Source of the DNA: Eremomyces bilateralis CBS 781.70
Taxonomy: Eukaryota; Ascomycota; Dothideomycetes; Eremomycetales; Eremomycetaceae
Assembly: GCF_010015585.1 (NCBI RefSeq)
Contig: NW_022985090.1
Location: 1-64,000 of the forward strand
DNA length: 64,000 nt
Direction of reading: 5' to 3'
Below the pieces are notes generated by a model. That model was not told where the DNA came from. It did no database searches and saw only the letters and a list, made by a program, of their open reading frames with translations. Of the stretch, positions 1 to 41,755 are shown in pieces; position 1 is the first letter of the stretch, and every line of letters starts with the position of its first letter. The position numbers were made by a program, and so were the translations under genes.

Positions 1-262
1 GGGCTACGGAGAAGGCCCTTTTGGCGAAGGAGAGGCAGGTTAGTAAGGAGGCTCGATTAGCCAACCTCCAGATCCGCAGGGAGTCTAGATCCTTTAGAAC
101 CACCAAGAGAAAGTCTATACAGGTGGTTTCAAGGCGAAGTCTACAGCCTCACGTTATCCCCAGTGGTCAAGAAGATACAGAGGGGGGTCCTTCGTCTGGG
201 CGCCCACGACGTGAGAAACGCCTCCCAAAACGCCTACAGGACTACGAATTAGATGGGAAATA
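1..262 (+). pseudogene. C-terminal fragment of a pogo/Fot1-type transposase
   Basis: The reading frame enters from the window edge and ends at a stop at 260-262. It encodes a basic, charged tail (about 80 residues visible) rich in Arg, Lys and Glu, typical of the C-terminal end of fungal pogo/Fot1 (DDE_1) transposases. Bases 1-159 match 15457-15615 without a visible difference, where the same tail follows a recognisable DDE domain; that is the main reason for the call. The catalytic domain lies outside the window. No terminal inverted repeat could be located downstream. Confidence 0.7.
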
Positions 263-13086: not shown

Positions 13087-13825
13087 GGGGATATCAGACA
13101 CGACAGCAAAAAACCCGCACCGGATGATCCAGGACGAGTATCGAGCGAAATGGAGGGAGAGATGGCAAGCCGAAGCGGCCAGACCAGGAAGGAGAGCAAG
13201 GACATGGAAGGAACCGTGGGAAACCCAGTGCCTTAACCGGTACGACGGCCTTCAGAAACACGAGACCCCGGCGCTTATGGCACTACGGACTGAGGTAGTT
13301 GGAGTTAAAGGATGGCTCGCGAAAATTGGTGTCCCTGGAATCCACCCAGCGTGTGAGTGCGGTGCCCCCCAACAGACTCTCTACCATCTCCTTGCATTTT
13401 GCCCGCAGCGGACCGACCAGAGGATCGCGCTCCTCCAACGAGCTGGAACAACGGACTTTAAGAGGATATTGCATGACAGGGACAAGGTGCGCCACGCAGC
13501 AAAGTGGCTGATCGATGCGGGAGGCCTAGAGCAATACCGGGTGGCCAAGGAAGTTGAGGAGGAGGTAATAGAGGACTGGAAACCGTTCCAGTTCCTCCAC
13601 GACGTGCCAGAATAAGCTCTCCGCGTAGGCGGAAACACCGACTCTTACGGATAGATAATAAACGTTTAAGATAGTCTACTAAAGGGAGGAGGCGGGATTT
13701 TATGTACCCGCAGCCTCAGGGCTACGGGGAAACTTTTGCCCGCGGCAGACCAGATAGAATACCGTGCTCATAGACCCGAAAGGGATCCAGATAGTACGTT
13801 AAATTGATTCTTATTATAATTAGAT
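13087..13825 (+). mobile_element. 5'-truncated Tad-like LINE, copy A (3' end of ORF2)
   Basis: An open frame from 13088 to 13615 encodes the C-terminal end of a non-LTR retrotransposon polyprotein. It begins GISDTTAKNPHRMIQDEYR, continues through KWRERWQAEAARPGR and the cysteine/histidine motif HPACECGAPQQTLYHLLAFC found after the reverse transcriptase/RNase H region of Tad-type elements, and ends FLHDVPE. About 200 bp of 3' UTR and a TTATTATAATTA tail follow. The 5' break coincides with the 15-bp direct repeat. Compared with copy B at 15626, most differences are C-to-T or G-to-A in this copy, which is consistent with repeat-induced point mutation. Confidence 0.8.
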
Positions 13826-13840
13826 ACATCTTTACCAAAA

Positions 13841-15615
13841 TGAATCAGATTGAGCTCGCTCTTGCTGCGTTGGAGTTGGAGGAGAAACCTAATTATACTA
13901 AGAATGCAAAAGAGTATGGAATCGACCGTACAACGTTATCTAGGAGACATCGCCAAAAAACCACCTCTAGGCAAGATGCGGACTTGAACAGAGGAAAACT
14001 CCATGGATTCCAGGAGAAGAAACTTGTTTCGTATATCAACGACCTCTGTAGGCGTGGTTTTCCGCCTACTACTACAATGGTACAGAACTTTGCCTGCGAT
14101 ATTGCGAAACAAGACATAGGCAAGAACTGGGTCTCTAGATTCGTGGAGCGGCATGAGACGATGCTCGACGGGAGATATCTCAACGTTATCGAGTCCTCCA
14201 GGACCCGGGCGGATAAGGAGCAAGACTATCGTGATTTCTACGCCTTATTAGCCCAAAAGATTACGGAATACGACATTGATCGGGAGAATATGTACAATAT
14301 GGATGAAAAGGGCTTCCTTATGGGGATCATGACCAAGATGAGACGGATCGTCTCAAAGGCGGTTTTATCGCAAAATAAGAGCCTAGCGCCACGACGGATG
14401 GTAATCGTGAGTGGATTACCATTCTTGCATGTATCTGTGCGGATAGTTCCTGGTTACCGCCCGGTCTAATTTACCAGGCGGTTTCCGGTAATCTCCAGGA
14501 CTCTTGGCTCCAGGATTTCGACACGGAGAACCACCAGGCCTTTTTTGCCTCATCTCCATCGGGATGGACGAACGATGAGCTAGGATTCCATTGGTTGACT
14601 ATCGTTTTTGAGCGGTATACGAAGCCGAAGGCGAGACGGAGATATCGTCTCTTGGTTATCGATGGGCACGGTAGCCATATCAATATGAGATTCCTGGATT
14701 GGTGCCACGAAAACCGTATTTTGGTATGCTGCTACCCTCCGCGTACCACTCATCGCCTACAACCGCTCGACGTTAGCCTGTTCTCACCTCTTGCGACCTA
14801 TTATGGGCAGGATCTCAATACCTTCATATCTGAGTGCCAGGGACTCTATTCTATCACGAAACGAGGGTTTTTTCGCTTATTTTGGGCGGCATGGCATAAA
14901 GCTTTCACTCCTGCCCATATTCGAAGTGGTGGGGAAAAAACAGGACTGGATCCACTAGATCAGTCCGTGGTCCTACATGTTATCGGGATTAGGGAAACAA
15001 CCTCTCGACCGGGCTCAAATGCATCATCGGCAGATTCTCACCTCTCGTCAACGGACTGGAGACAAGTAAAACGGATTATCCGTGATGCTGTAGGTAATGC
15101 GGTTACTTCGGAGTCGAAAAAGCTTCTCAGCTCGGTCGCACAGCTTTCAACCGATATTACCCTCTTACGAGCGTAAAACCAGGGCCTGCGAAAGGCTATC
15201 ATCAACGAGAAAAAGAAACGTAAGAGGGCGAAGCCGTTATTTGAAGAGTTATGTGCTGAAACTGGTATAAAGGCACAGTTTTTCAGTCCCTCCAAGATCC
15301 AGAGAGCTCGCGAACTTCAAACACAGAGAGAAGAGGAAAAGGTCGATCAAGAGGCACAAAGACAACAGGATAAGGTAGAGAGAGCACAACGCAAGATAGA
15401 GAAGGAAAAAAAGATGATAGAAAACCGCCTCCAACGAGATGAGGCACGTACAAGGAGGGCTACGGAGAAGGCCCTTTTGGCGAAGGAGAGGCAGGTTAGT
15501 AAGGAGGCTCGATTAGCCAACCTCCAGATCCGCAGGGAGTCTAGATCCTTTAGAACCACCAAGAGAAAGTCTATACAGGTGGTTTCAAGGCGAAGTCTAC
15601 AGCCTCACGTTATCC
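13841..15615 (+). pseudogene. pogo/Fot1-type transposase, frameshifted and cut by the assembly gap
   Basis: Starts at an ATG at 13841, only about 15 bp after the LINE tail. The N-terminus (NQIELALAALELEE, then YGIDRTTLSRRH) is a psq-like helix-turn-helix. A CENP-B-type second DNA-binding domain includes GKNWVSRFVERH. The DDE_1 catalytic core shows YNMDEKGFLMG (first Asp), LLVIDGHGSH (second Asp) and LQPLDVSLFSPL (third Asp). The frame changes between the first and second catalytic blocks (around 14.39-14.47 kb), and a TAA at 15174-15176 separates the core from a coiled, charged tail that continues to the N run. No terminal inverted repeat is seen at either end. It is not functional as written. 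The tail is identical to the fragment at 1-159. Confidence 0.85.
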
Positions 15616-15625
15616 NNNNNNNNNN
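15616..15625. other. Assembly gap (10 N)
   Basis: Ten consecutive N. The left side is transposase tail and the right side is LINE 3' sequence. Both flanks are repeats, so the true gap length and join are uncertain. Confidence 0.99.
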
Positions 15626-15952
15626 CACGCAGCAAGGTGGCTGATCGATGCGGGAGGCCTAGAGCAATACCGGGTGGCCAAGGAAGTTGAGGAGGAGGTA
15701 ATAGAGGACTGGAAACCGTTCCAGCTCCTCCACGACGTGCCAGAATAAGCTCTCCGCGTAGGCGGAAACACCGACTCGTGCGGAAAGATAGAAATGATTG
15801 AGATACTCTACTGAGGGGAGGAGGCGGGATTTTACGTACCCGCAGCCTCATGGCTACGGGGAAACTTTTGCCCGCGATAGACCAGATAGAGTGCCGCGCT
15901 CATAGACCCGAAAGGGATCCAGATAGTACGTTAAATTGATTCTTATTATTAT
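15626..15952 (+). mobile_element. Tad-like LINE 3' end, copy B
   Basis: Matches 13493-13820 of copy A almost base for base: the last 40 or so codons of ORF2 (ending VPE and TAA), the 3' UTR and a TTATTATTATTA tail. The right edge abuts the second copy of the 15-bp direct repeat. The 5' part is lost in the gap. This copy is the more GC-rich of the two at variable sites, so it is probably closer to the source sequence. Confidence 0.8.
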
Positions 15953-15967
15953 TACATACTGGGCATA
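15953..15967 (+). repeat. Right copy of the 15-bp direct repeat
   Basis: TACATACTGGGCATA, identical to 13072-13086, directly follows the LINE tail. Together the two copies bracket about 2.9 kb of mobile DNA. Confidence 0.7.
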
Positions 15968-26891: not shown

Positions 26892-28715
26892 AGTTCGAAT
26901 CCCTGCCAAATACCATAAGCAACCACCTAAGTAGCCAGTATCACCATCTCAACCACCATCACCTAGACCGTGATACCACTACGTAATTGTATTTAGAATT
27001 TAAACTATACGACTATTGCACAATATCTTGGGGAGACTCTTGGGCAGTTTGAGCTATTGGACTAGCCTGATTTGGTGGTGTATTCGCGTCAAGAAGTCGT
27101 ACAGCCTCTTGCGCTAGTTTGATCTCTTGAATCTGTGCGAATTTGACATTAAGATCTATCTGAACCTTCCTCTTACGTTTTGGGAGTGGAGCGGAATCTA
27201 GGTGGGCCTGAAGACCAGCAATTTTCAGTTCTGACGCAGCCTGGCGCGCCTGTAGCACTCCGATTGCCTTTGCTGCCTTCTCTATGTACGACTTGGTCGC
27301 CTTCGCCATGTGTGTATTCTTGCTAAGAACGCGCAATGCACTTTGTATTTGTTTGGGCCTGTAGGGCATCGTCTGGAGGACTGAGGGGACTAGTATTGGG
27401 GCGCGTGGAAGCGTGTTTGGTGGTGGAATTGAGGATGTTGTTTCGGTAGGCGTGGGCGGTACCACGAACCGGTTATTGAGGCCTTTTGACGGGTCCCACG
27501 GTATAAGACCTGCCCCCTTCCACCCCGATCTGATTGTACGGTCGGTTAGGCGTGCCTGGCGCGCCTTAGCATAGAGGACAATGAATCTTTGTCGTTTAAT
27601 CGGTAGCGCCTCGTCGATAAATGCGCTTTGGCGGAGGAGGGCCTTGTAGAAGCGTTTCAGAGGTGAAAAACAGGCGAGATCGAGAGGTTGAAGGATATGG
27701 GAGGTATGCGCAGGTAGGAAGACCACAGTCATGTCGTTTATCCTGCATTCGTATAGGAAATCGACGGTTGCATGGCTTCCGTGCCCGTCCATGAGTAGGA
27801 TCCTGGACCGTCGCTCTGTAGCGGTTTCATGGATGAAAACCGTACGAAGCCATACCAACACGTGTTTATCTGAAGCCCATCCGTTCGAAGATACCGCATA
27901 ATGCAAGTCTGGAGGCTGTCCGGGGAACCAAGCAGATTGTAGGGACGCGCCTTTCTGGATAACGGTTGCTTTGAGAGAGCGACTGGTTGCAGACTGCTTC
28001 TAGGATAGAAAACCATTCCCGGTTCTCAGGACTCGTGATTTAGGCTGTCGACTTCTGCGAGTCTGCGATAACAGTAGAAGTAGAACTAGCACATATTCCC
28101 ATTCCAACACCGACTTCATCCATATTTCATGTATCGGAAGAGTGGACATCGTACTGTGTCTGAACTTGGTGAAAATACGCGTAAAACCCAATGATTGTAT
28201 CCGGTGTTGCAGCCCGACGTCATACGACATCTGGACTATGTCCAATACAGGTCGCAACGCGTGGATTTCGATGTAGAAATCGCGGTACCCAGTTCTTCCC
28301 AAGAGGGGTGGAATCTTCTTGAAGGGATAGAACTCGCGATGCCATTTCTCGCAGTCGTGCGTGGGTAGGAGGGAATCCTTGAGCGTTATTCTCAAGTATC
28401 CAATCAACTAAAAAGGCCTCTTGCACCGGTGTAAGGCGTTGGTTCGATCGTTGAGCTTTAGCTCGTGGAGGGACACCTCTGAGGCGGTTTTGAAGCGTTC
28501 GTCAGTTGACCTGGAATAGGGCCGCAGCTTCGTTTTGTGATTTGCATTGACCGGTCTCTACTTAAGGCATGAATGGCATGTTGGACTCGATCCTCCAAAG
28601 ATGACATCGTAATATTAGACGGTGGCGGTGACATCACGGTTCAAGTGATGGTGGTTGAGATGGTGATACTCTACTGGCTACTTAGATGAGTGGCTACTTG
28701 GCTGGGGTTCGAACA
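26892..28715 (-). mobile_element. pogo/Fot1-type DNA transposon with long terminal inverted repeats
   Basis: The two ends form an imperfect inverted repeat of about 87 bp: 26892-26978 against 28629-28715. Matching blocks include GTTCGAA at the tips, TAAGTAGCCAGT, ATCACCATCTCAACCACC and ACCGTGAT. TA dinucleotides flank both ends (26890-26891 and 28716-28717), as expected for Tc1/mariner-superfamily insertion. The length of about 1.82 kb and a single internal transposase fit a pogo/Fot1 element. It looks complete at its ends but its transposase is broken. Confidence 0.8.
27013..28607 (-). pseudogene. Transposase of the 26.9-28.7 kb pogo-type element, broken
   Basis: The C-terminal 297 residues are open (27906-27013) and contain the second catalytic Asp in LLMDGHGSH and the third in LQPLDLACFSPL, then a charged tail rich in Gln and Ala. 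The first catalytic Asp, in NMDEVGVGMG, lies near 28120 in another frame, and the CENP-B-like DNA-binding block (FLVDWILENNAQGFPPTHAR, then GKNWVPRFL) lies at 28426-28220. A TAA near 28050 and at least two frame changes separate these parts. The likely original start is the ATG at 28607. The protein cannot be made intact from this copy. Confidence 0.8.
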
Positions 28716-32398: not shown

Positions 32399-32706
32399 CG
32401 ATCGTTTTCGAAAGAGCTTGAGTACTTCAAGATATAGTTAAATATTATGCCTGGTTAGGCAGGAACGCTCACGGAGGATACATCAAGGGAGCGATCACCA
32501 GTGATCGAAGGGATTAGAGTAATCACTAGTGATAGTTTGGAGGATTCTTGGATTGATCTCAAAGGTAAACTATCTAGTATCGGACAGAACGAAGAATGAA
32601 GAAGAAAAGGGAAGGGAAACAGGAACGAAGGAGGTATCTTATCTACATGTGTATCTTCCCGTGGTGGTTGTTTGTTACCCACCTCTCAACACATGCGACT
32701 ATCCTA
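32399..32706. other. Intergenic region before a mariner-type element
   Basis: Contains GATCACCAGTGATC and AATCACTAGTGAT, a short self-complementary pair near 32490-32530. No gene. Confidence 0.4.
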
Positions 32707-34328
32707 CATTGGGGTGGTCAAATTTGTGGCGCAGAGGTCTTAGCAGCTGATATATCTCCAGCTCCCTCAACTTTGATCTTCAATATCTTCACCATTTTTT
32801 ATACAAATCATGCCAGGAAAAGAGTGGGATAGTCTCCGTAAGATTGCATTTTTTAGGCTCTATGATCAGTCCAAAACCGCCAATGATTTACCTCAATCTG
32901 TCGCCAAAAGGGCATTAAGATCCCACCATCAACAGGCCGCCGATGGCTTGCCCAATGCGATGAGCCAGGGCTACGGGCTATACGACGTACAAGGGATATT
33001 AGCAAACGCCTTGGACGACCTCCTAGCCTCGATAGCCGGACGCTTCAGAGCCCCCTCGATCCGTAGAACGAGCTATACTGGAAGTCAAGAGAGGAGCAAG
33101 CAAAAGAGCTAAGGGTATACACTCGAACACTCCAAAAGAACTTCTCTAAACGGCTCAACGCGAGGCGCTATAAGAAGCCACAAACCAAGGCTATCAGCTC
33201 TACAAACAAGGGGGTCCGGAAGGTCTATGGGGAGGACCATCGTGGTAAGTCAATCAAAGATCTATGGCGATGGCTCTACTTCATAGACGGGACCTATTTC
33301 AACTCCAGAGATCTCGCTGATAAGCAGGAATACGAGTTACGGGTCCCAGGCGAATCTCAACGATTTAAATCAATACAGGGGATTCAGGGTAGCCCCCTCG
33401 ACGTAACGGTTCACGTTGCAGCCGGAATCTCCTATGATCGGAAAGGGGTCTTCCATTTCTACCCTAATCCAGCCGAACCAGCTGCAAAAAGGGCGTATAG
33501 GCCCCGGAGACCGCGGAGGTCAAGTGTTGAGACTTGTAAGTGTATCACTGTAGGGAGTCTCCAATCGTGAGGCAAACATTGAATTGTTGCTATGAAGGAG
33601 GAATCTATCTAACTGTAAGGTGTGCGAGGCGTTTATCTGTTCTGGTGTTTACAGAGCAAACGGGCCAGGGCCACAGCAGGGCCACATGACAAGGCCACAA
33701 GGCCACAAGGCATCCAGGTCGATAGACCTCTGATCCATCACAAGACTACTGAGCAGTATACCGCTGCATAAGAGGCGTGGGAGGCCGGCTAGCGGGGCGA
33801 TATTGACGTAGATATCAAGATTAAAGGGAACTCGATGACCCAAAATTATTACGCTCAATACATCCTTCCAAAGCATATCGAGCATATTAAGGCTCTTGGT
33901 GAGCAATTCGGCCATCGTTTCTACTTATAGGACGACGGTGATTCATCGCATGGGATGCGATCCTTGATGAATCCAGCCGCGCAGGCTAAACCCGCGGCAG
34001 GTATCTTGATACTCCCCAATCCAGCGCAATCGGCTGATCTCGACCCCAATCGAGTCAATTTGGCAGATCATAAAGTAACGGCTACGCGGCGGGAGGTGGG
34101 AGACGGTGAAAGAGTTCAAGGAGGCGATCCTACGCGAATGGAAGCGTATTACACAGCAGCAAATCCGTTCAAGGACATCTGAGATGCGTTGGCGATGTGA
34201 GAAAGTAGTAAAACTTAAGAGAGCACGTATTAGGAGCTCGTTGTGGTAGATACCAACAATTGAAGTCGTTGATAGCGTGCTTTGTCCGGTGCCAAGACCT
34301 CTGCGCCACGAATTTTACCACCCCGGTG
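32707..34328 (+). mobile_element. Dead Tc1/mariner-type (Ant/Tan-like) transposon
   Basis: The ends form an inverted repeat of about 39 bp: 32707-32745 against 34290-34328, sharing GGGGTGGT, then GTGGCGCAGAGGTCTT. Inside, plus-strand pieces of a DDE_3-type transposase are visible from 32810 to 34249. They run in order from MPGKEWDSLRKIAFFRLYDQ, a helix-turn-helix region, LWRWLYFIDGTYFNSRD, to MTQNYYAQYILPKHIEHIK, DDGDSSHGM and a final EMRWRCEKVV. Several stops and frame changes interrupt it. A flanking TA is present on the left (32705-32706) but not clearly on the right. Confidence 0.75.
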
Positions 34329-34345
34329 GAGCGCGTGCAAGGTCT

Positions 34346-34447
34346 TGGCGCTGTGGCAGGGAGTTTTTGGAACCGCCGGTAACGAAACGGGAGCGTTTCG
34401 CCTAAGCGGAAAACCCTCCAAAAACGGCGTCAGAAACCTCCGTTTTT
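34346..34447 (+). repeat. Diverged direct repeat, copy 1
   Basis: About 100 bp beginning GTCTTGGCGCTGTGGCAGGG are repeated at 34977-35080 with roughly 80 percent identity by eye; most differences are transitions. In one frame both encode LALWQGV, then GT..NET.AFRL and NGVRN. Copy 1 begins just outside the right end of the mariner-type element. Confidence 0.7.
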
Positions 34448-34556
34448 GGAGGTCATTTCGGTAGCACACAGTTAATTACTGCGTATCCGAACATCAGATT
34501 TCATTTCATATACACTCTCTGCCTCGATCATAGGCAGACATACGAGTCGAGCAAGC

Positions 34557-35085
34557 AATGCAAAGGCCATCTCCGTCGCATTTAGCGGCAGCGGCGCCCA
34601 GTCAATCGCCTCTTCCCCCACGAATACAATCAACGCCTTCTACATCGCTTCAATCCGAACCATCTACCAGCATATCCGACAGCGCGTAATCTGCCTCGCC
34701 CAACCCACCAATTCATGTCCAGCAGTCAGAACACCCGCCATCTCAACCATTTCAGCTCTCTAAACCGCCTGAAGCAGAGTTTCCTCGCCCTACCACCGGC
34801 CTTACCCAGACCGCACACGTTGCCCCCTTCCTCCTCAACACAAACCTGATCCATGTCTCGAGCAAGGCCGATTGCCCATTCGCACAATTTCGGGCTGCCA
34901 GAGCCGTGAATCTAGCGTGGAGAAGTTGTGAAGGCTCTCTGAGGCGAGATCCGAAAATATCGTTTGCCAAACACGACGCCTTGGCGCTATGGCAGGGAGT
35001 CTTGGGCACCACCAGTAATGAAACGAGAGCGTTTCGCCTAGGCTGAAAGCCCTTTGGAAATGGCGTCAGAAACTACCGTGTCGCT
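34557..35085 (+). pseudogene. Unrecognised Pro/Ser-rich reading frame, interrupted, with duplicated tail
   Basis: From the ATG at 34557 the frame reads a Pro/Ser/Gln-rich segment (MQRPSPSHLAAAAPSQSPLP), meets a stop near 34689, and continues through FPRPTTGLTQTAHVAPFLL and CPFAQFRAARAVNLAWRSC to the tail DALALWQGVLGTTSNETRAF. The tail is shared with copy 1 at 34346. The pattern of a repeated, decaying reading frame suggests a mobile or multi-copy gene, but I recognise no domain. Confidence 0.35.
34977..35080 (+). repeat. Diverged direct repeat, copy 2
   Basis: Partner of 34346-34447. It forms the 3' end of the interrupted reading frame at 34557-35085. Confidence 0.7.
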
Positions 35086-35438: not shown

Positions 35439-38400
35439 ATGACGAGGTCTTTTGTTCGTCGATCAAAATCGTCGATCAACACCTATGCAGACCAAAGTTG
35501 TGACGAGATTACATCGTTGAGTATTCCATCAAGGCATAACGTAACAATGGTAATGGTACGCAATAGCGGCGATACCTCCGGTAAGTACCTCAGTTTTGCG
35601 GCTTCTAGATACATCAAATTGACTAGCAGTCTAGATTTAGATCGAGTACTTAATATCTTACCCATTGCTGCCGATGCATCGTTCAAATCATTCAAGCGAC
35701 AGCACGAACCAACCTGCCACCCCGATACCCGTGTCGCCCTCCTCCGAGAGATATACAACTGGGCTGATGGAGAACGCTCACCATTCATCTTCTGGCTGAG
35801 CGGTTTGGCCGGCACTGGCAAGTCTACAATAGCGCGAACAGTGGCCGCCAGTTACTCTCAGAAGGGTCAACTTACGGGGAGCTTCTTCTTCTCACGGACC
35901 GGGGGGGATGTTGGTCGCACCGGAAAGTTCATTACAAGTATTGCATTCCAGCTTGCGAATGCAATACCAGATTTGAAGCCTAAGATTTGCGATGCTATAT
36001 CTAAGTGCAATAATATTTCAAGCTGGTCTCTCCACGATCAGTGGCACGAACTCATTCTTGGTCCCTTATCGAAACTTGACGACAAGGATTGCCGATCGAA
36101 ACATGTCCTTGTTGTCGACGCGCTTGATGAGTGTGAAGATCAGAACAATATTCAGATTATTTTACAACTTCTAGCTGAAGTTCAATCATTAAAGGTTATT
36201 AAGCTACGAGTGCTTTTAACGAGCAGGCCTGAGGTTCCGATCCAGCATGGGTTCCACCAAATACGAGAAGACGAGCACCAAGATTTAGTACTTGATGATA
36301 TTAAGCGGTCGATTATAGACCACGACATTTCTGTTTTCCTGAGAGGCAAACTCAGACTTATTGGACGAGAATGTCGATTTAAGGCCGGCTGGCCGGAAGA
36401 CAGAGCTATCGAACGCCTAGTCCAGAACTCAGGGGGATTGTTTATCTGGGCTGCAACAGCCTGTCGGTTCATCGAACAAGACGGCCAGCTTGCAGAAACA
36501 CGACTGACTTCTCTTCTATGGGAAGGCAGTGGTATACTTCTACCAGAGCGGAAGCTTGATAAAATATATACCACCGTCCTCACCAATTCTCTCCGAGGAG
36601 AATACGATAAAGAAGAAAGCTGGAGGCTGCACAAGCTATTTCGCCAAATTGTTGGACCTATGGTAACGTTACGAGATCCGCTATCCGTATCTAGTCTTGC
36701 GGAGCTGCTTGGGAAAGATGTCCACACTTTAAAACGAACCTTGACCAACTTATATTCCGTTCTCGATATGCCGAACATCGAGACAAATACCATTCGGCTT
36801 CTCCATCCATCATTCCACGACTTCCTTCTTGACCAGAGCAGATACTCGAATCCTCAATTTTACATCGACAAGAAACTCGTCCATCGTCTAATTTATCAAA
36901 ACTGTCTTCAAGTAATGTCAAAGCACCTACGGCGCGATATCTGCAATCTCCAACATCCGGGAGCTTCCACAGCCGGCTTGAGCGGAACCGAATTAGACAG
37001 ACATGTCCAACCTCCTGTCCAGTACGCATGCCGGTTCTGGGTATATCATTTCAAGCGAAGCGATATGGACATTGGCGACTACGATGACATTGAAGTATTT
37101 CTCCGAAGGCACTTCCTTCACTGGCTTGAAGTACTATCATTGCTAGGTTGTGTCTCTGATGCGACTTTTATGATTGATATGCTAGACTCAACATTGGTAA
37201 GAAGACCGATCACGGAAATCGATGACACTAGCTGACCGGTCAGAATATGCGAATCGAGCAACCTCAGATGCGATTAGGGCTTCGTGATAGAATAAAATCG
37301 ACCTTTCTACACCGCCTTGACCTCAAGAATGAAGGAACAACACCTTCTAGTTTACAAGCTTTCATACATGACGCTATACGCTTCACCGTAACTTTTCAAC
37401 CGGTTTTGGAAACGTCACCACTACAAGTATATTACGGGGGTCTAACATTTAGTCCGAATGCGAGCATTGTCAGGAAGAACTTCTTGATTGAAGTTCCAGC
37501 TTGGATCTCATGCATGCCCAAGGTGTCGGAAAAATGGAGCCACTATTTACAGGTGTTCAAGGGCCATTCAGGCCGGGTCACGTCCGTGGACTTCTCGCCG
37601 GACAGCAAGACGCTGGCATCAGCATCAGAGGACGCAACGATCAGGGTGTGGGACGCCGGGTCCGGAAAGGCGCTACAAACGCTTAAGGGCCATTTAGACT
37701 GGGTCATGTCCGTGGCCTTCTCACCGGACAGCAAGACGCTGGCGTCGGCATCGGTGGACGCGACGGTCAGGGTGTGGGACGCCGAGTCCGGGAAGGCGCT
37801 ACAAACATTTAAGGGCCATTTAGACTGGGTCGCTGCCGTGACCTTCTCGCCGGATAGCAAGATGCTAGCGTCAGCATCGAGCGACGCGACGGTCAGAATA
37901 TGGGACGCCCGGTCCGGAAAGGCGCTACGGATACTCAAGGGCCATTCGGGCATAGTCAAGGCCGTAACCTTCTCGCCGGACGGTAAGACGCTGGCGTCGG
38001 CATTATGCGATGCAACGGTTAGGGTATGGGACGTCGAGTCCGGAAAGGCGCTACGGACACTTAAGGGCCATTCGGGCTGGGTCGCGGCTGTGACCTTCTC
38101 GCCGAACGGCAAGACACTAGCGTCGGCATCATGCGACGGGACGGCCAAGGTGTGGGATCTCGGGTCTGGGGAGACGCTACAGACGCTTTATGGCCATTCG
38201 AACGTGGTCGCAGCCGTGACCTTCTCGCCGGATGGTAAGACACTAGTATCAGCATCGTGGGATACGACGGTCAGAGTATGGGACGCCGGGTCCGGGGAGG
38301 CGCTACAGACGCTTAAGGGCCATTCAAGGGCCGTTAAAGCCGTAGCCTTCTCGCCGGACGGCATGACGCTGGCGTCGGCATCGGGAGACACGACGGTCAG

Positions 38401-40426
38401 AGTGTGGGACGCGGGGTCTAGAGAGACGCTACAGACGCTCAAGGGCCATTCGAACCGGGTCACGGCTATAGCCTTCTCGCCAGACGGTAAGATGCTAGCA
38501 TCGGCATCAGATGACGCGACCGTCAAGATATGGGACGCCGGGTCTAGAAAGGCGCTACAGACGCTTAAGGGCCATTTGAACCTAGTCACGGCTATAGCCT
38601 TCTCGCTAGACAGCAAGACGCTAGCTTCGGCATCAGACGACGGGATAGTCAGGGTATGGGACGCCGGGCCCGGAAAGGCGCTACAGATACTTAAGGGCCA
38701 TTCGGGGTGGGTTACGGCCGTACTCTTCTCGCCGGACAGCAAGACGCTAGCGTCGACATCATGGGACGCGACGGTCAGAATATGGGACGTTGAGTCCGGA
38801 GAGGCGCTACAGACGCTTAAGGGCCATTCGAACGTGGTCATGGCTGTGGCCTTCTCGCCGGACGGCAAGATGCTGGCGTCAGCATCGGGCGACGCAACGG
38901 TCAGAATATGGGACGCCAGGTCCGGAAAGGCGCTACGGATACTCAAGGGCCATTCAGGCTGGGTTACAGCCGTGACCTTCTCGCCGGACGATAGGACGCT
39001 GGCGTCGGCATCGTGGGACACGACGGTTAGAGTATGGGACGCCGGGTCCGGAAAGGCGCTACAGATACTCAAGGGCCATTCGGGCTGGGTCGCGGCCGTA
39101 GCCTTCTCGCCAGACGGCAAGACGCTAGTATCGGCATCGTGGGACGCGACAGTCAGAATATGGGACGCCGGATCCGGGAAGGCGCTGCAGACGCTTAAGG
39201 GCCATTCAAACCTGGTCGCAGCCGTGGCCTTCTCGCCGGACGGCAAGACGCTGGCGTCGGCATCGTGGGACACGACGGTCAGAATATGGGACGCCAGGTC
39301 CGGAAAGACGCTACAGATACTCAAGGGTTACTCGGGTCGGGTCACGGCCGTAGCCTTCTCGCCAAACGGTAAGATGTTAGCGTCGGCATCGTGGGACATG
39401 ACGGTCAGAGTGTGGGACACCGGGTCTAGAAAGTCGCTACAGATGTTCAACGGCCATTCGAACGCGGTCACGGCCGTAGCCTTCTCGCCAGACGGCAAAA
39501 CGCTAGCGTCCGTATCGGACGATACGACGGTCAGAATATGGGACGCCGGGTCCGGGAAGGCGCTACAAACACTTAAGGGCCATTCGAACCGGGTTACGGC
39601 CGTAACCTTCTCGCCGGACGGTAAGACGCTAGCATCGGCATCGGGCGACGCAACGGTCAGAATATGGGATGCCGGATCCGGGAAGGCGTTACAGACGCTT
39701 AAGGGCCATTCGGGCTTTGTCGCAGCCGTGGTCTTCTCGCCAGACGGCAAGACGCTGGCGTCGGTACCGTGGGACATGACGGTCAGGGTGTGGGACGCCA
39801 GGTCCGGAAAGGCGCTCCAGACGCTTAAGGGCCATATGGGCATAGTCATGGCCGTGGCTTTCTCGCCGGACAGTACGATTCTGGCGTCGGCATCGTGGGA
39901 CGAGACGGTTAGGGTGTGGGACGCCGGGTCCGGGAAGGCGCTACAAACACTTAAGGGCCATTCGAACCGGGTTATGGCCGTAACCTTCTCGCCGGACGGT
40001 AAGACGCTGGTGTCGGCATCGAGCGACGCGACGGTCAGAATATGGGACGCCAGGTCCGGAATGGCGCTGCGGACGCTCCAGACGAATTTCAGTATTGGCA
40101 GCTTATCGTTTACCGAAGACGGGTCGTGTCTTATGACTAACAGGGGATTACTATATATTTGGGATCCTTCCAATCCCACAGTTCTTTCTCAACCCACGTC
40201 TCAGCCGTCAGCATTTATCGAGGATGAATGGGTATGGTATGGTGGTGAAAGAATTCTTTGGCTTCCTTTAGAGTATCAACAATCAACATGTACTGCTGTC
40301 CATGGTAGTACTGTTGCGTTTGGGTATTCCTCTGGTCAGGTTTTAATTATTGGATTTGCGTTTGAACATTTGCGTTTGCCTTTACCACCTCCCCAGTCAT
40401 CTCCGTTGCAGTTACGCTCTCTTTGA
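35439..40426 (+). CDS. NACHT-WD40 NLR, het-e/HNWD-like
   Basis: Two exons are inferred, 35439-37196 and 37244-40426, giving about 1646 residues. The 47-bp intron is classical (GTAAGA, CTGAC, CAG) and removes the stop that would otherwise end the first frame. Residues 1-85 match no effector domain I know. The NACHT domain starts at FWLSGLAGTGKSTIA (Walker A about 122-129), with FFFSRTGGDVG and Walker B HVLVVDALDECED near 225-235, then TSRPE (sensor) and LLHPSFHDFLLD (winged-helix end). WD40 repeats occupy 37556-40075: 20 units of exactly 42 residues, then a degenerate 21st blade ending in YIWDP. Such proteins act as non-self sensors triggering cell death or incompatibility; ligand binding by the WD40 part opens the NACHT oligomeriser. 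The start is uncertain: the ATG at 35439 is the first in frame. Confidence 0.88.
37556..40075 (+). repeat. Tandem array of 20 WD40-coding repeats, 126 bp each
   Basis: Twenty units in perfect 126-bp register with no insertion or deletion. Each encodes a version of LKGHSxxVxAVxFSPDGKTL followed by ASASxDxTVRxWDAxSGKALQT. Long stretches such as AAGGGCCATTCG and CTTCTCGCCGGACGG recur almost unchanged between distant units, so they have been homogenised or amplified recently. Differences cluster at a few codons, mainly the positions after GH, just before FSPD, before the D of SASxD, and after WDA. With the degenerate blade that follows (FSIGSLSFTEDGS to YIWDP) the total is 21, enough for three seven-bladed propellers. 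Confidence 0.95.
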
Positions 40427-40779: not shown

Positions 40780-41755
40780 TATACATCCCGCTCTGAGGAA
40801 TTGGTCGTTATTGGGGGCGAGTAAGGTCAATCATACTGTACCGGGCCGCATAGGCGGAGGGATGAATGAACTTATGGGTAAGATGCGAAGCGTGGTTATC
40901 CATCAAGAGCAGTCGTTTCCCCTTCTTAGCCCGGTGTCTTGTATACCGATGGAAATCCTGGATCCAATCGAAGGCAATAAGGTCGTTTGACCACCCAGAC
41001 TTAGAGATGTTGATACAGTAATCGTCTGGAATCTGGCCTTCGTACCATCGTTCAAGATGGTTCTCGCCCTTTAAGATAAAGTAGGGCGGAAGAACAAAAC
41101 CATCAGCAGCGACACACTCGATATCCGTAACCGATTCGCCTGACTCCGTACTAGGACTGCCTCGTTTTGCCCCCGGTCGGAAACTAACCACTTTTTGCCG
41201 CTTCCCTTCACCAAGGCGGAAGCCACTTTCGTCGAAATTATATATATTCCGTGCCTCGATTCCATGCTCTTGAATCTGCTCCTGAAGGAGTTGAAACCAA
41301 TACTGTATATGTCCAAGATCCTCAGCACGTAGGCAGTCGTCTTTAACTGGTTTTTGGTCGATAAGCGAAAGGGTGTGGCGCTTGATAAATTTATATTTCC
41401 AGTTCTTACTAACGTGAGGTGGCTGCGTTGTATCGAGGGCGTTTATTCGGAGTATAGAGTTGGCGCACGCTTCGATTTCTGTAGGCGTAGGAGGCGCTCC
41501 CCACTCATCAAGCTGATGGATCCAAGCTAGGAGAGCCTTATCTGTAGCTGATCGAGTTTAGACGCTTGTACGAACGGAGAACGGTTGGTATAGGATGTTT
41601 TTCCTTCAAGGCGGCCTCGAAGGACAGGCCGGCTGATTTGGAACTCACGCGCTAACGCTGAAACGTTAACCAATTTCCCTGCTTTTTTTTTTTGGCTCTG
41701 TAGCCTTCTTGAGTGCTTTCTGTATAGTCTCCTCTGAATATTTGACACGTTTAGA
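40780..41755 (-). pseudogene. pogo-type transposase, 3'-truncated and broken
   Basis: The likely start is the ATG at 41758-41755 (MSKRVKYSEETIQKALKKA), a psq-like DNA-binding region. It is followed by a run of ten A on the coding strand where the frame shifts, then LAREFQISRPVLRGRLEG. The catalytic core shows IYNFDESGFRLGEG (first Asp), a zinc-free linker with GFVLPPYFILKG, and LLLMDNHASHLT (second Asp). Shortly after HKFIHPSAYA the coding sequence is lost, so the third catalytic Asp and the tail are missing. It is a different lineage from the elements at 13.8, 26.9 and 50.5 kb. No matching terminal repeat is found on the truncated side. Confidence 0.75.

What the first reader, a model, noticed from the sequence alone, without database searches (positions are those of the whole stretch)
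35439..40426. NACHT-WD40 NLR with 20 near-identical repeats: candidate allorecognition or immune receptor
The gene joins a complete NACHT domain (Walker A and B visible) to a WD40 array in perfect 126-bp register. This is the layout of Podospora het-e, het-d and het-r, where repeat number and sequence define non-self specificity. One 47-bp intron makes the whole gene open, so it looks expressed and functional rather than decayed.
Basis: partly seen in the sequence, partly recalled or inferred. Interest (0 to 1): 0.85.

Follow-up and report, generated by a model that had tools for sequence, protein, structure and literature searches.

The report
Fungal NACHT-WD40 receptor with twenty repeats
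This looks like an intact fungal gene for an internal immune-type receptor with an unusually long row of twenty similar, but not near-identical, WD40 repeats; it is a member of a well-described kind of gene, and this single sequence does not show that it tells self from non-self.

Summary
The gene is real: exon 1 35439-37196, a 47-bp intron 37197-37243, exon 2 37244-40426, 1646 residues; a NACHT/NPHP3_N domain, then exactly twenty 42-residue WD40 repeats without indels. It is a fungal NACHT-WD40 NOD-like receptor (NLR). The repeats are not near-identical: mean pairwise identity 79% (DNA), 72% (protein), no two alike, synonymous divergence about 0.35. Against the published 0.85 'high internal conservation' mark the array is borderline: 0.81 to consensus as a whole, above 0.85 only in some shorter stretches. 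No HET or other effector domain was found in the forward frames upstream. The four most variable positions match the positively selected het-d/het-e positions, but the same four lead in pooled prokaryotic WD40 arrays, so this is generic propeller surface. Purifying selection elsewhere in the repeat (dN/dS 0.25) argues for long-maintained function. Less ordinary: 20 repeats is near the published maximum of 21 (a possible triple propeller), GC3 steps up at both array edges, and a CpA-to-TpA skew resembles RIP. No isolates, RNA or fungal genomes were available, so allorecognition stays untested. New member of a known kind.

The parts
35439..37196 (+). Exon 1: short N-terminus (about 100 residues, no domain found), NACHT/NPHP3_N domain, helical region. 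In-frame ATGs at 35439, 35547 and 35553; the true start is not known
35748..36296 (+). NPHP3_N (35748-36227) and NACHT (35793-36296) Pfam matches; Walker A 35802-35828, Walker B 36102-36134
36798..36833 (+). LLHPSFHDFLLD, place of the helical-third-domain motif; not the NAIP-like motif, so T-NACHT by exclusion
   Evidence: motif quoted in a PMC12258605 passage; the placing is my reading
37197..37243 (+). Predicted 47-bp intron, phase 0, GTAAGA / GCTGAC / CAG
   Evidence: no RNA evidence
37244..37558 (+). Start of exon 2: linker between NACHT part and WD40 array, GC3 low like exon 1
37559..40078 (+). Twenty WD40 repeats of 126 bp / 42 residues, all different
40079..40426 (+). C-terminal tail with at least one degenerate WD40-like unit (from 40079), then stop; GC3 drops again
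   Evidence: degenerate unit is my reading, modelled as strands only at pLDDT below about 66

Best explanation
A fungal NACHT-WD40 NOD-like receptor, a STAND-type molecular switch. The NACHT domain binds nucleotide and holds the protein off; the WD40 propellers (20 canonical repeats plus at least one degenerate one, enough for about three rings) are the sensor; contact of a ligand with the variable propeller faces would release the NACHT domain, which oligomerises and sets off a cell-death or defence response. As no effector domain was found at its own N-terminus, it would signal through its short N-terminal segment or a partner protein encoded elsewhere. Shown here: gene structure, domains, repeat structure, purifying selection between repeats. 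Inferred from the known families: the switch mechanism, the immune role, the partner. Whether the ligand is self or foreign is not known.
For: NPHP3_N and NACHT matches with Walker A and B, 20 WD40 stretches. Open frame of 1646 codons through one well-formed intron. Repeats differ by array-wide dS 0.48 yet dN/dS is 0.25 (0.20-0.31) at the 35 positions outside the seven surface ones, so the array was under constraint while it diverged. Seven repeats plus tail model as a WD40 propeller (pTM 0.74; Foldseek). NACHT-WD40 is a common fungal NLR layout, short unannotated N-termini are common (termini under 100 residues are a quarter of all, PMC9815663 passage), and roughly half of NLR N-termini had no annotation in PMC4986451 (passage).
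Against: No effector domain, no RNA, no population data, no close relative in any collection searched, no adjacent effector-like gene recognised (10 neighbouring open frames). An immune role is inferred from the family alone. Constraint between repeats is a record of the past and does not prove present function. The gene lies between pieces of transposons.
Confidence: 0.7

Rival explanations
1. An allorecognition (heterokaryon incompatibility) gene that works like het-e/het-d/het-r: repeat number and sequence set non-self specificity.
For: NACHT-WD40 order and 126-bp repeats as in het-d/e; the four most entropic positions match the four positively selected het-d/e codons (P 9e-6 for a fixed offset that I inferred; by pN only 3 of the top 4 do); dN at those four is 1.77 times array-wide dS; RIP-like skew as reported for Podospora repeats (PMC1805685 passage); some stretches of 3-7 repeats exceed 0.85 to their own consensus.
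Against: Same four positions lead in pooled prokaryotic arrays; dN/dS at the four is 1.03 (0.64-1.62), positive selection not shown; mean pairwise protein identity only 0.72; runs test at third positions P 0.35, no sign of recent exchange; no HET domain found.
Confidence: 0.2
2. A truncated or decaying NLR that lost its N-terminal effector domain, perhaps through the transposons upstream, and is on its way to a pseudogene.
For: Transposon-like debris ends at 35079, 360 bp before the first in-frame ATG; no effector domain in the forward frames upstream; a truncated Tc5-type transposase piece starts 382 bp after the stop.
Against: Whole frame open with no stop and a well-formed intron; dN/dS 0.25 outside the surface positions; short N-termini are common in fungal NLRs (PMC9815663 passages).
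Confidence: 0.2
3. A NACHT-WD40 protein with a non-immune cellular role.
For: A fungal NACHT protein needed for unconventional secretion is reported in Penicillium herquei (PMC13311144; title and start of abstract in a search listing only).
Against: Nothing specific here. Highly conserved repeats in Dikarya sit mainly (60-70%) in NLR-like proteins (PMC4986451 section 13), though this array is borderline for that class.
Confidence: 0.08

Closest known systems
Podospora anserina NWD/HNWD family (het-e, het-d, het-r and NWD members without HET)
   Same: NACHT then WD40 array of 126-bp units; most variable repeat positions in the same places; RIP-like skew in repeats reported there too (PMC1805685 passages)
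   Different: No HET domain found; 20 repeats against 11 in usual functional het-d/e alleles (PMC12222747 abstract passage); repeats clearly more diverged. The NACHT parts could not be compared: no fungal sequence was available
Fungal NLRs with many WD repeats (survey in PMC4986451)
   Same: T-NACHT/WD40 layout is frequent; 42-residue repeats typical; up to 21 WD repeats, a possible triple propeller (section 13)
   Different: Counts drop sharply above 14 repeats in that survey, so 20 is in the rare tail
2ymu, 'highly repetitive propeller structure' (PDB)
   Same: Best Foldseek match (E 3.0e-31, 45% identity) to the model of repeats 14-20 plus tail
   Different: Similarity of fold and repeats only (TM-score 0.54 by query, 0.39 by target)

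Membership tests
Fungal NLR (STAND, NACHT type) | Central NACHT nucleotide-binding domain with Walker A and B | tested here: met
Fungal NLR (STAND, NACHT type) | C-terminal superstructure-forming repeats | tested here: met
   20 WD40 stretches
Fungal NLR (STAND, NACHT type) | N-terminal effector or signalling domain | tested here: inconclusive
   None found by Pfam in exon 1 or three forward frames upstream; amyloid-motif profiles were not available
[quoted passage not shown]
   LLHPSFHDFLLD at that place, by exclusion and by eye; the T-NACHT profile itself was not run; motif from PMC12258605 passage
HNWD family (het-e, het-d, het-r) | N-terminal HET domain | tested here: not met
   0 Pfam families in three forward frames upstream; none in exon 1 before the NACHT part
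HNWD family (het-e, het-d, het-r) | Repeats 80-100% identical within the gene | tested here: not met
   Protein mean 0.72; 21 of 190 pairs reach 0.80
HNWD family (het-e, het-d, het-r) | Positive diversifying selection at four surface codons | tested here: inconclusive
   Same positions most variable but dN/dS 1.03 (0.64-1.62), and pattern generic
HNWD family (het-e, het-d, het-r) | Repeat number polymorphic between isolates; recognition of HET-C or HET-V type partners | not testable with these tools
   No genome or isolates held
NLR with high internal conservation (HIC) repeats | Repeat region of at least 100 residues at 0.85 (T-reks PSIM, PMC4986451 section 8) | tested here: inconclusive
   T-reks was not run. 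Identity to consensus is 0.81 for the whole array; 8 of 18 three-repeat and 2 of 14 seven-repeat stretches exceed 0.85 to their own consensus, none by mean pairwise identity

The most novel reading that the evidence does not exclude
A rare three-propeller fungal NLR sensor that signals without an effector domain of its own, whose array once evolved in concert (leaving GC-enriched, RIP-marked repeats) but has since been frozen, so that its 20 repeats carry 20 different surface signatures: a fixed multi-contact sensor instead of a fast-shuffling allorecognition one.
Probability: 0.2. Interest if true: 0.45.

Novelty: new member of a known kind. Interest (0 to 1): 0.27.

Why it matters
It tempers an attractive over-reading. 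WD40 arrays of this sort resemble het-e at a glance, but repeat divergence and a control with unrelated WD40 arrays separate 'NACHT-WD40 receptor' from 'allorecognition gene'. If the triple propeller and the frozen array hold, the locus would be a natural comparison for how repeat sensors leave the fast-shuffling regime.

Tried and rejected
Allorecognition from the position pattern: rejected as evidence, because the mean entropy over 7 prokaryotic arrays puts the same four positions first. Those 7 are the ones with 6 or more rigid 42-residue repeats among 39 loci fetched; 32 were left out. L004 and L005 are close relatives, so the 7 are not independent. Single arrays vary: in L003 the four rank 5, 16, 13, 14, in L010 20, 11, 7, 7, in L023 2, 7, 12, 25. 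The search pattern itself restricted positions 2, 3, 25 and 31.

Recent exchange between repeats: the runs test gives P 0.001 on all 85 polymorphic sites but P 0.35 on the 37 third-position ones, and the longest run is not significant; not claimed. A periodicity of 7 or 8 repeats has P 0.13 after correction over lags; not claimed.

A second intron at 35581 (GTAAGT): judged unused, because the frame it would join has stops just upstream (frames; my reading).

Relatives: viral-contig scans with the NACHT part and with the WD40 part gave none; plasmids by tblastn with the NACHT part, none; PDB by sequence with exon 1, only three matches at E 0.6-0.9; PADLOC none for exon 1; NCBIfam none for exon 1 and 11 below-cut-off matches for exon 2. 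No paralogue elsewhere in the window at E<=1. Phage records were not searched.

Structure: the exon-2 product alone failed (mean pLDDT 34.9). The second job used repeats 14-20 plus the tail, aligned with 7 other seven-repeat stretches of the array. It cannot decide blade counts, since I chose its ends, and its matches include eight-bladed designs.

The paper's own method (section 8) uses T-reks at PSIM 0.85, and a further count makes it borderline; I raised allorecognition from 0.15 to 0.2 for that reason.

Full report
What is there. The gene runs 35439-40426 on the + strand. Exon 1 (35439-37196) and exon 2 (37244-40426) join across a 47-bp intron with GTAAGA, GCTGAC and CAG, phase 0, giving 1646 residues and one terminal stop. 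Without it the exon-1 frame ends at 37235. A strict pattern for such introns occurs 5 times in the window, 2 on + and 3 on -, against a mean of 0.8 per strand in 40 Markov-1 simulations. One of the other four lies just 5' of the cullin frame (cullin by Pfam) and is probably a true intron (my reading). No RNA evidence was available.

Domains. Pfam gives NPHP3_N (E 3.6e-31, residues 104-263) and NACHT (E 1.3e-8, residues 119-286) in the exon-1 frame, and 20 WD40 stretches in exon 2. Walker A, Walker B and the place of the helical-third-domain motif are at 35802, 36102 and 36798. By the motif quoted in PMC12258605 (passage) the NACHT is of the T type by exclusion. About 100 residues precede the domain. 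Three forward frames starting at 33900 and ending at 35700, 35620 and 35537 gave no Pfam family at E<=1 (ends). Ten neighbouring open frames on both sides and strands gave only one match, below its cut-off; this was not every open frame, and the minus strand was not scanned base by base.

The repeats. The array is 37559-40078, exactly 20 x 126 bp without indels. All 20 units differ. Pairwise identity is 0.790 (0.714-0.889) for DNA and 0.720 (0.571-0.857) for protein; identity to the consensus is 0.86 and 0.81. Median pairwise pS is 0.36 and the closest pair (12, 14) has 0.11. Published marks: 0.85 by T-reks over at least 100 residues (PMC4986451 sections 8 and 13) and over 80% to 100% within HNWD genes (PMC12222747 passage). 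21 of 190 pairs reach 0.80 and 4 reach 0.85; by mean pairwise identity none of the stretches of 3, 4, 5 or 7 repeats passes 0.85, while to their own consensus 8 of 18, 7 of 17, 3 of 16 and 2 of 14 do (a consensus of few sequences flatters them). So 'near-identical' does not hold; high internal conservation is borderline. The longest exact repeat is 58 bp and it is the only one of 40 bp or more, which makes misassembly less likely than in the Podospora genes, where short reads fail (PMC12222747 passages).

Which positions vary. By entropy the top four positions are 6, 24, 26 and 8, then 11 and 5; by pN they are 6, 24, 5, 26, then 8 and 11. PMC1805685 (passage) names codons 7, 9, 25, 27 as positively selected, in pairs around conserved codons 8 and 26. 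I matched these to 6, 8, 24, 26 around V7 and D25 by that spacing, and the seven positions used in PMC12222747 to 4, 5, 6, 8, 24, 26, 33. The offset is my inference. The entropy match has P 9e-6. Control: 7 of the 39 prokaryotic-titled loci had 6 or more rigid repeats; their mean entropy also ranks 6, 8, 24, 26 first, and correlates with this array at 0.64 (Spearman), though three of the seven do not show it singly. The pattern is thus a property of WD40 propeller faces. dN/dS is 1.03 (0.64-1.62) at the four positions, 1.09 (0.76-1.74) at the seven and 0.25 (0.20-0.31) at the other 35; dN at the four is 1.77 times array-wide dS. This fits relaxed or mildly diversifying change and does not establish positive selection. 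The 0.25 argues for function during divergence.

Two compositional marks. GC3 is 0.64-0.83 in the 20 repeats and 0.26-0.60 in the 18 flanking 42-codon blocks of the gene (the first 19 and last 31 codons fall outside the blocks): a step at both edges. Transitions against the repeat consensus favour C-to-T before A (39 of 185, against 6 of 120, 27 of 306 and 9 of 129 before C, G and T) and G-to-A after T (23 of 94, against 22 of 178, 52 of 334 and 29 of 334 after A, C and G). At third positions the T fraction is 0.50 in 8 CpA-type columns and 0.22 in 33 others (Mann-Whitney P 0.0025); 8 of 8 against 20 of 33 are polymorphic (Fisher P 0.033); 41 of 42 columns were used. This resembles RIP, and PMC1805685 reports the same tendency, without convincing statistics, in Podospora repeats (passage). 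Against it: few columns, codon effects, a GC-rich array, and a raised reverse change A-to-G after T (29 of 113), so direction is not shown. Past GC-biased conversion could explain the GC3 step; that is inference.

Structure. Repeats 14-20 plus tail, aligned with seven other seven-repeat stretches, model with pTM 0.74; blocks in the repeats have pLDDT 66-96 and most of the tail is below 50. Foldseek finds WD40 propellers, seven- and eight-bladed. PMC4986451 reports a sharp drop above 14 WD repeats and a maximum of 21, which could allow a triple propeller (section 13). Twenty plus a degenerate unit at 40079 would fit by counting; no model tests it.

Surroundings. Transposon-like debris lies on both sides: an inverted pair 32704-32750/34285-34331 and a 100-bp direct pair whose second copy ends at 35079, and a Tc5-type transposase piece on the minus strand from 40808.

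Literature. I saw passages of PMC12222747 (and section 17), PMC4986451 (and sections 8 and 13), PMC12258605, PMC1805685, PMC2873952, PMC9815663 and PMC5023957, and a listing only of PMC13311144. I did not read any paper whole.

Conclusion. An intact-looking T-NACHT/WD40 fungal NLR with a long, diverged repeat array and no recognised effector domain. It probably works like other NACHT-WD40 receptors. It is not filed as an HNWD member, because the HET domain and the repeat identity were tested and not met; membership in the high-internal-conservation class is open. Allorecognition remains possible at about 0.2.

Noticed in passing
window 37559-40078: GC3 steps up to 0.64-0.83 exactly at the array edges, against 0.26-0.60 in the rest of the gene, together with a CpA/TpA skew.
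   Followed up: partly
window 37543-38187, 38188-39327, 39328-40188, minus strand: Long open frames run antisense through the repeats (214, 379 and 286 codons), most likely a by-product of the repeated composition.
   Followed up: no
window 32704-35079: Inverted pair 32704-32750/34285-34331 (83%) and a direct 100-bp pair 34344-34443/34980-35079 (82%), remains of mobile elements beside the NLR.
   Followed up: partly
window 40808-41557, minus strand: Tc5-type DNA-binding domain plus a DDE_1 match that stops at profile position 93 of 177: a truncated transposase right after the NLR.
   Followed up: partly
window 13493-15959: DDE_1 transposase (14379-15173) between direct repeats 13493-13827 and 15626-15959; a 10-N gap at 15616-15625 follows 159 bp (15457-15615) identical to window 1-159, perhaps an assembly join.
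   Followed up: no
window 26937-28670: Inverted pair 26937-26979/28628-28670 (88%) around a minus-strand DDE_1 transposase.
   Followed up: no
L011 760-5628: A locus titled Methanobrevibacter (MAG) has a long open frame with a P-loop-like motif (GYGKS) followed by WD40 repeats, 13 of them rigid with mean identity 0.56: a prokaryotic analogue or a mis-binned contig.
   Followed up: no
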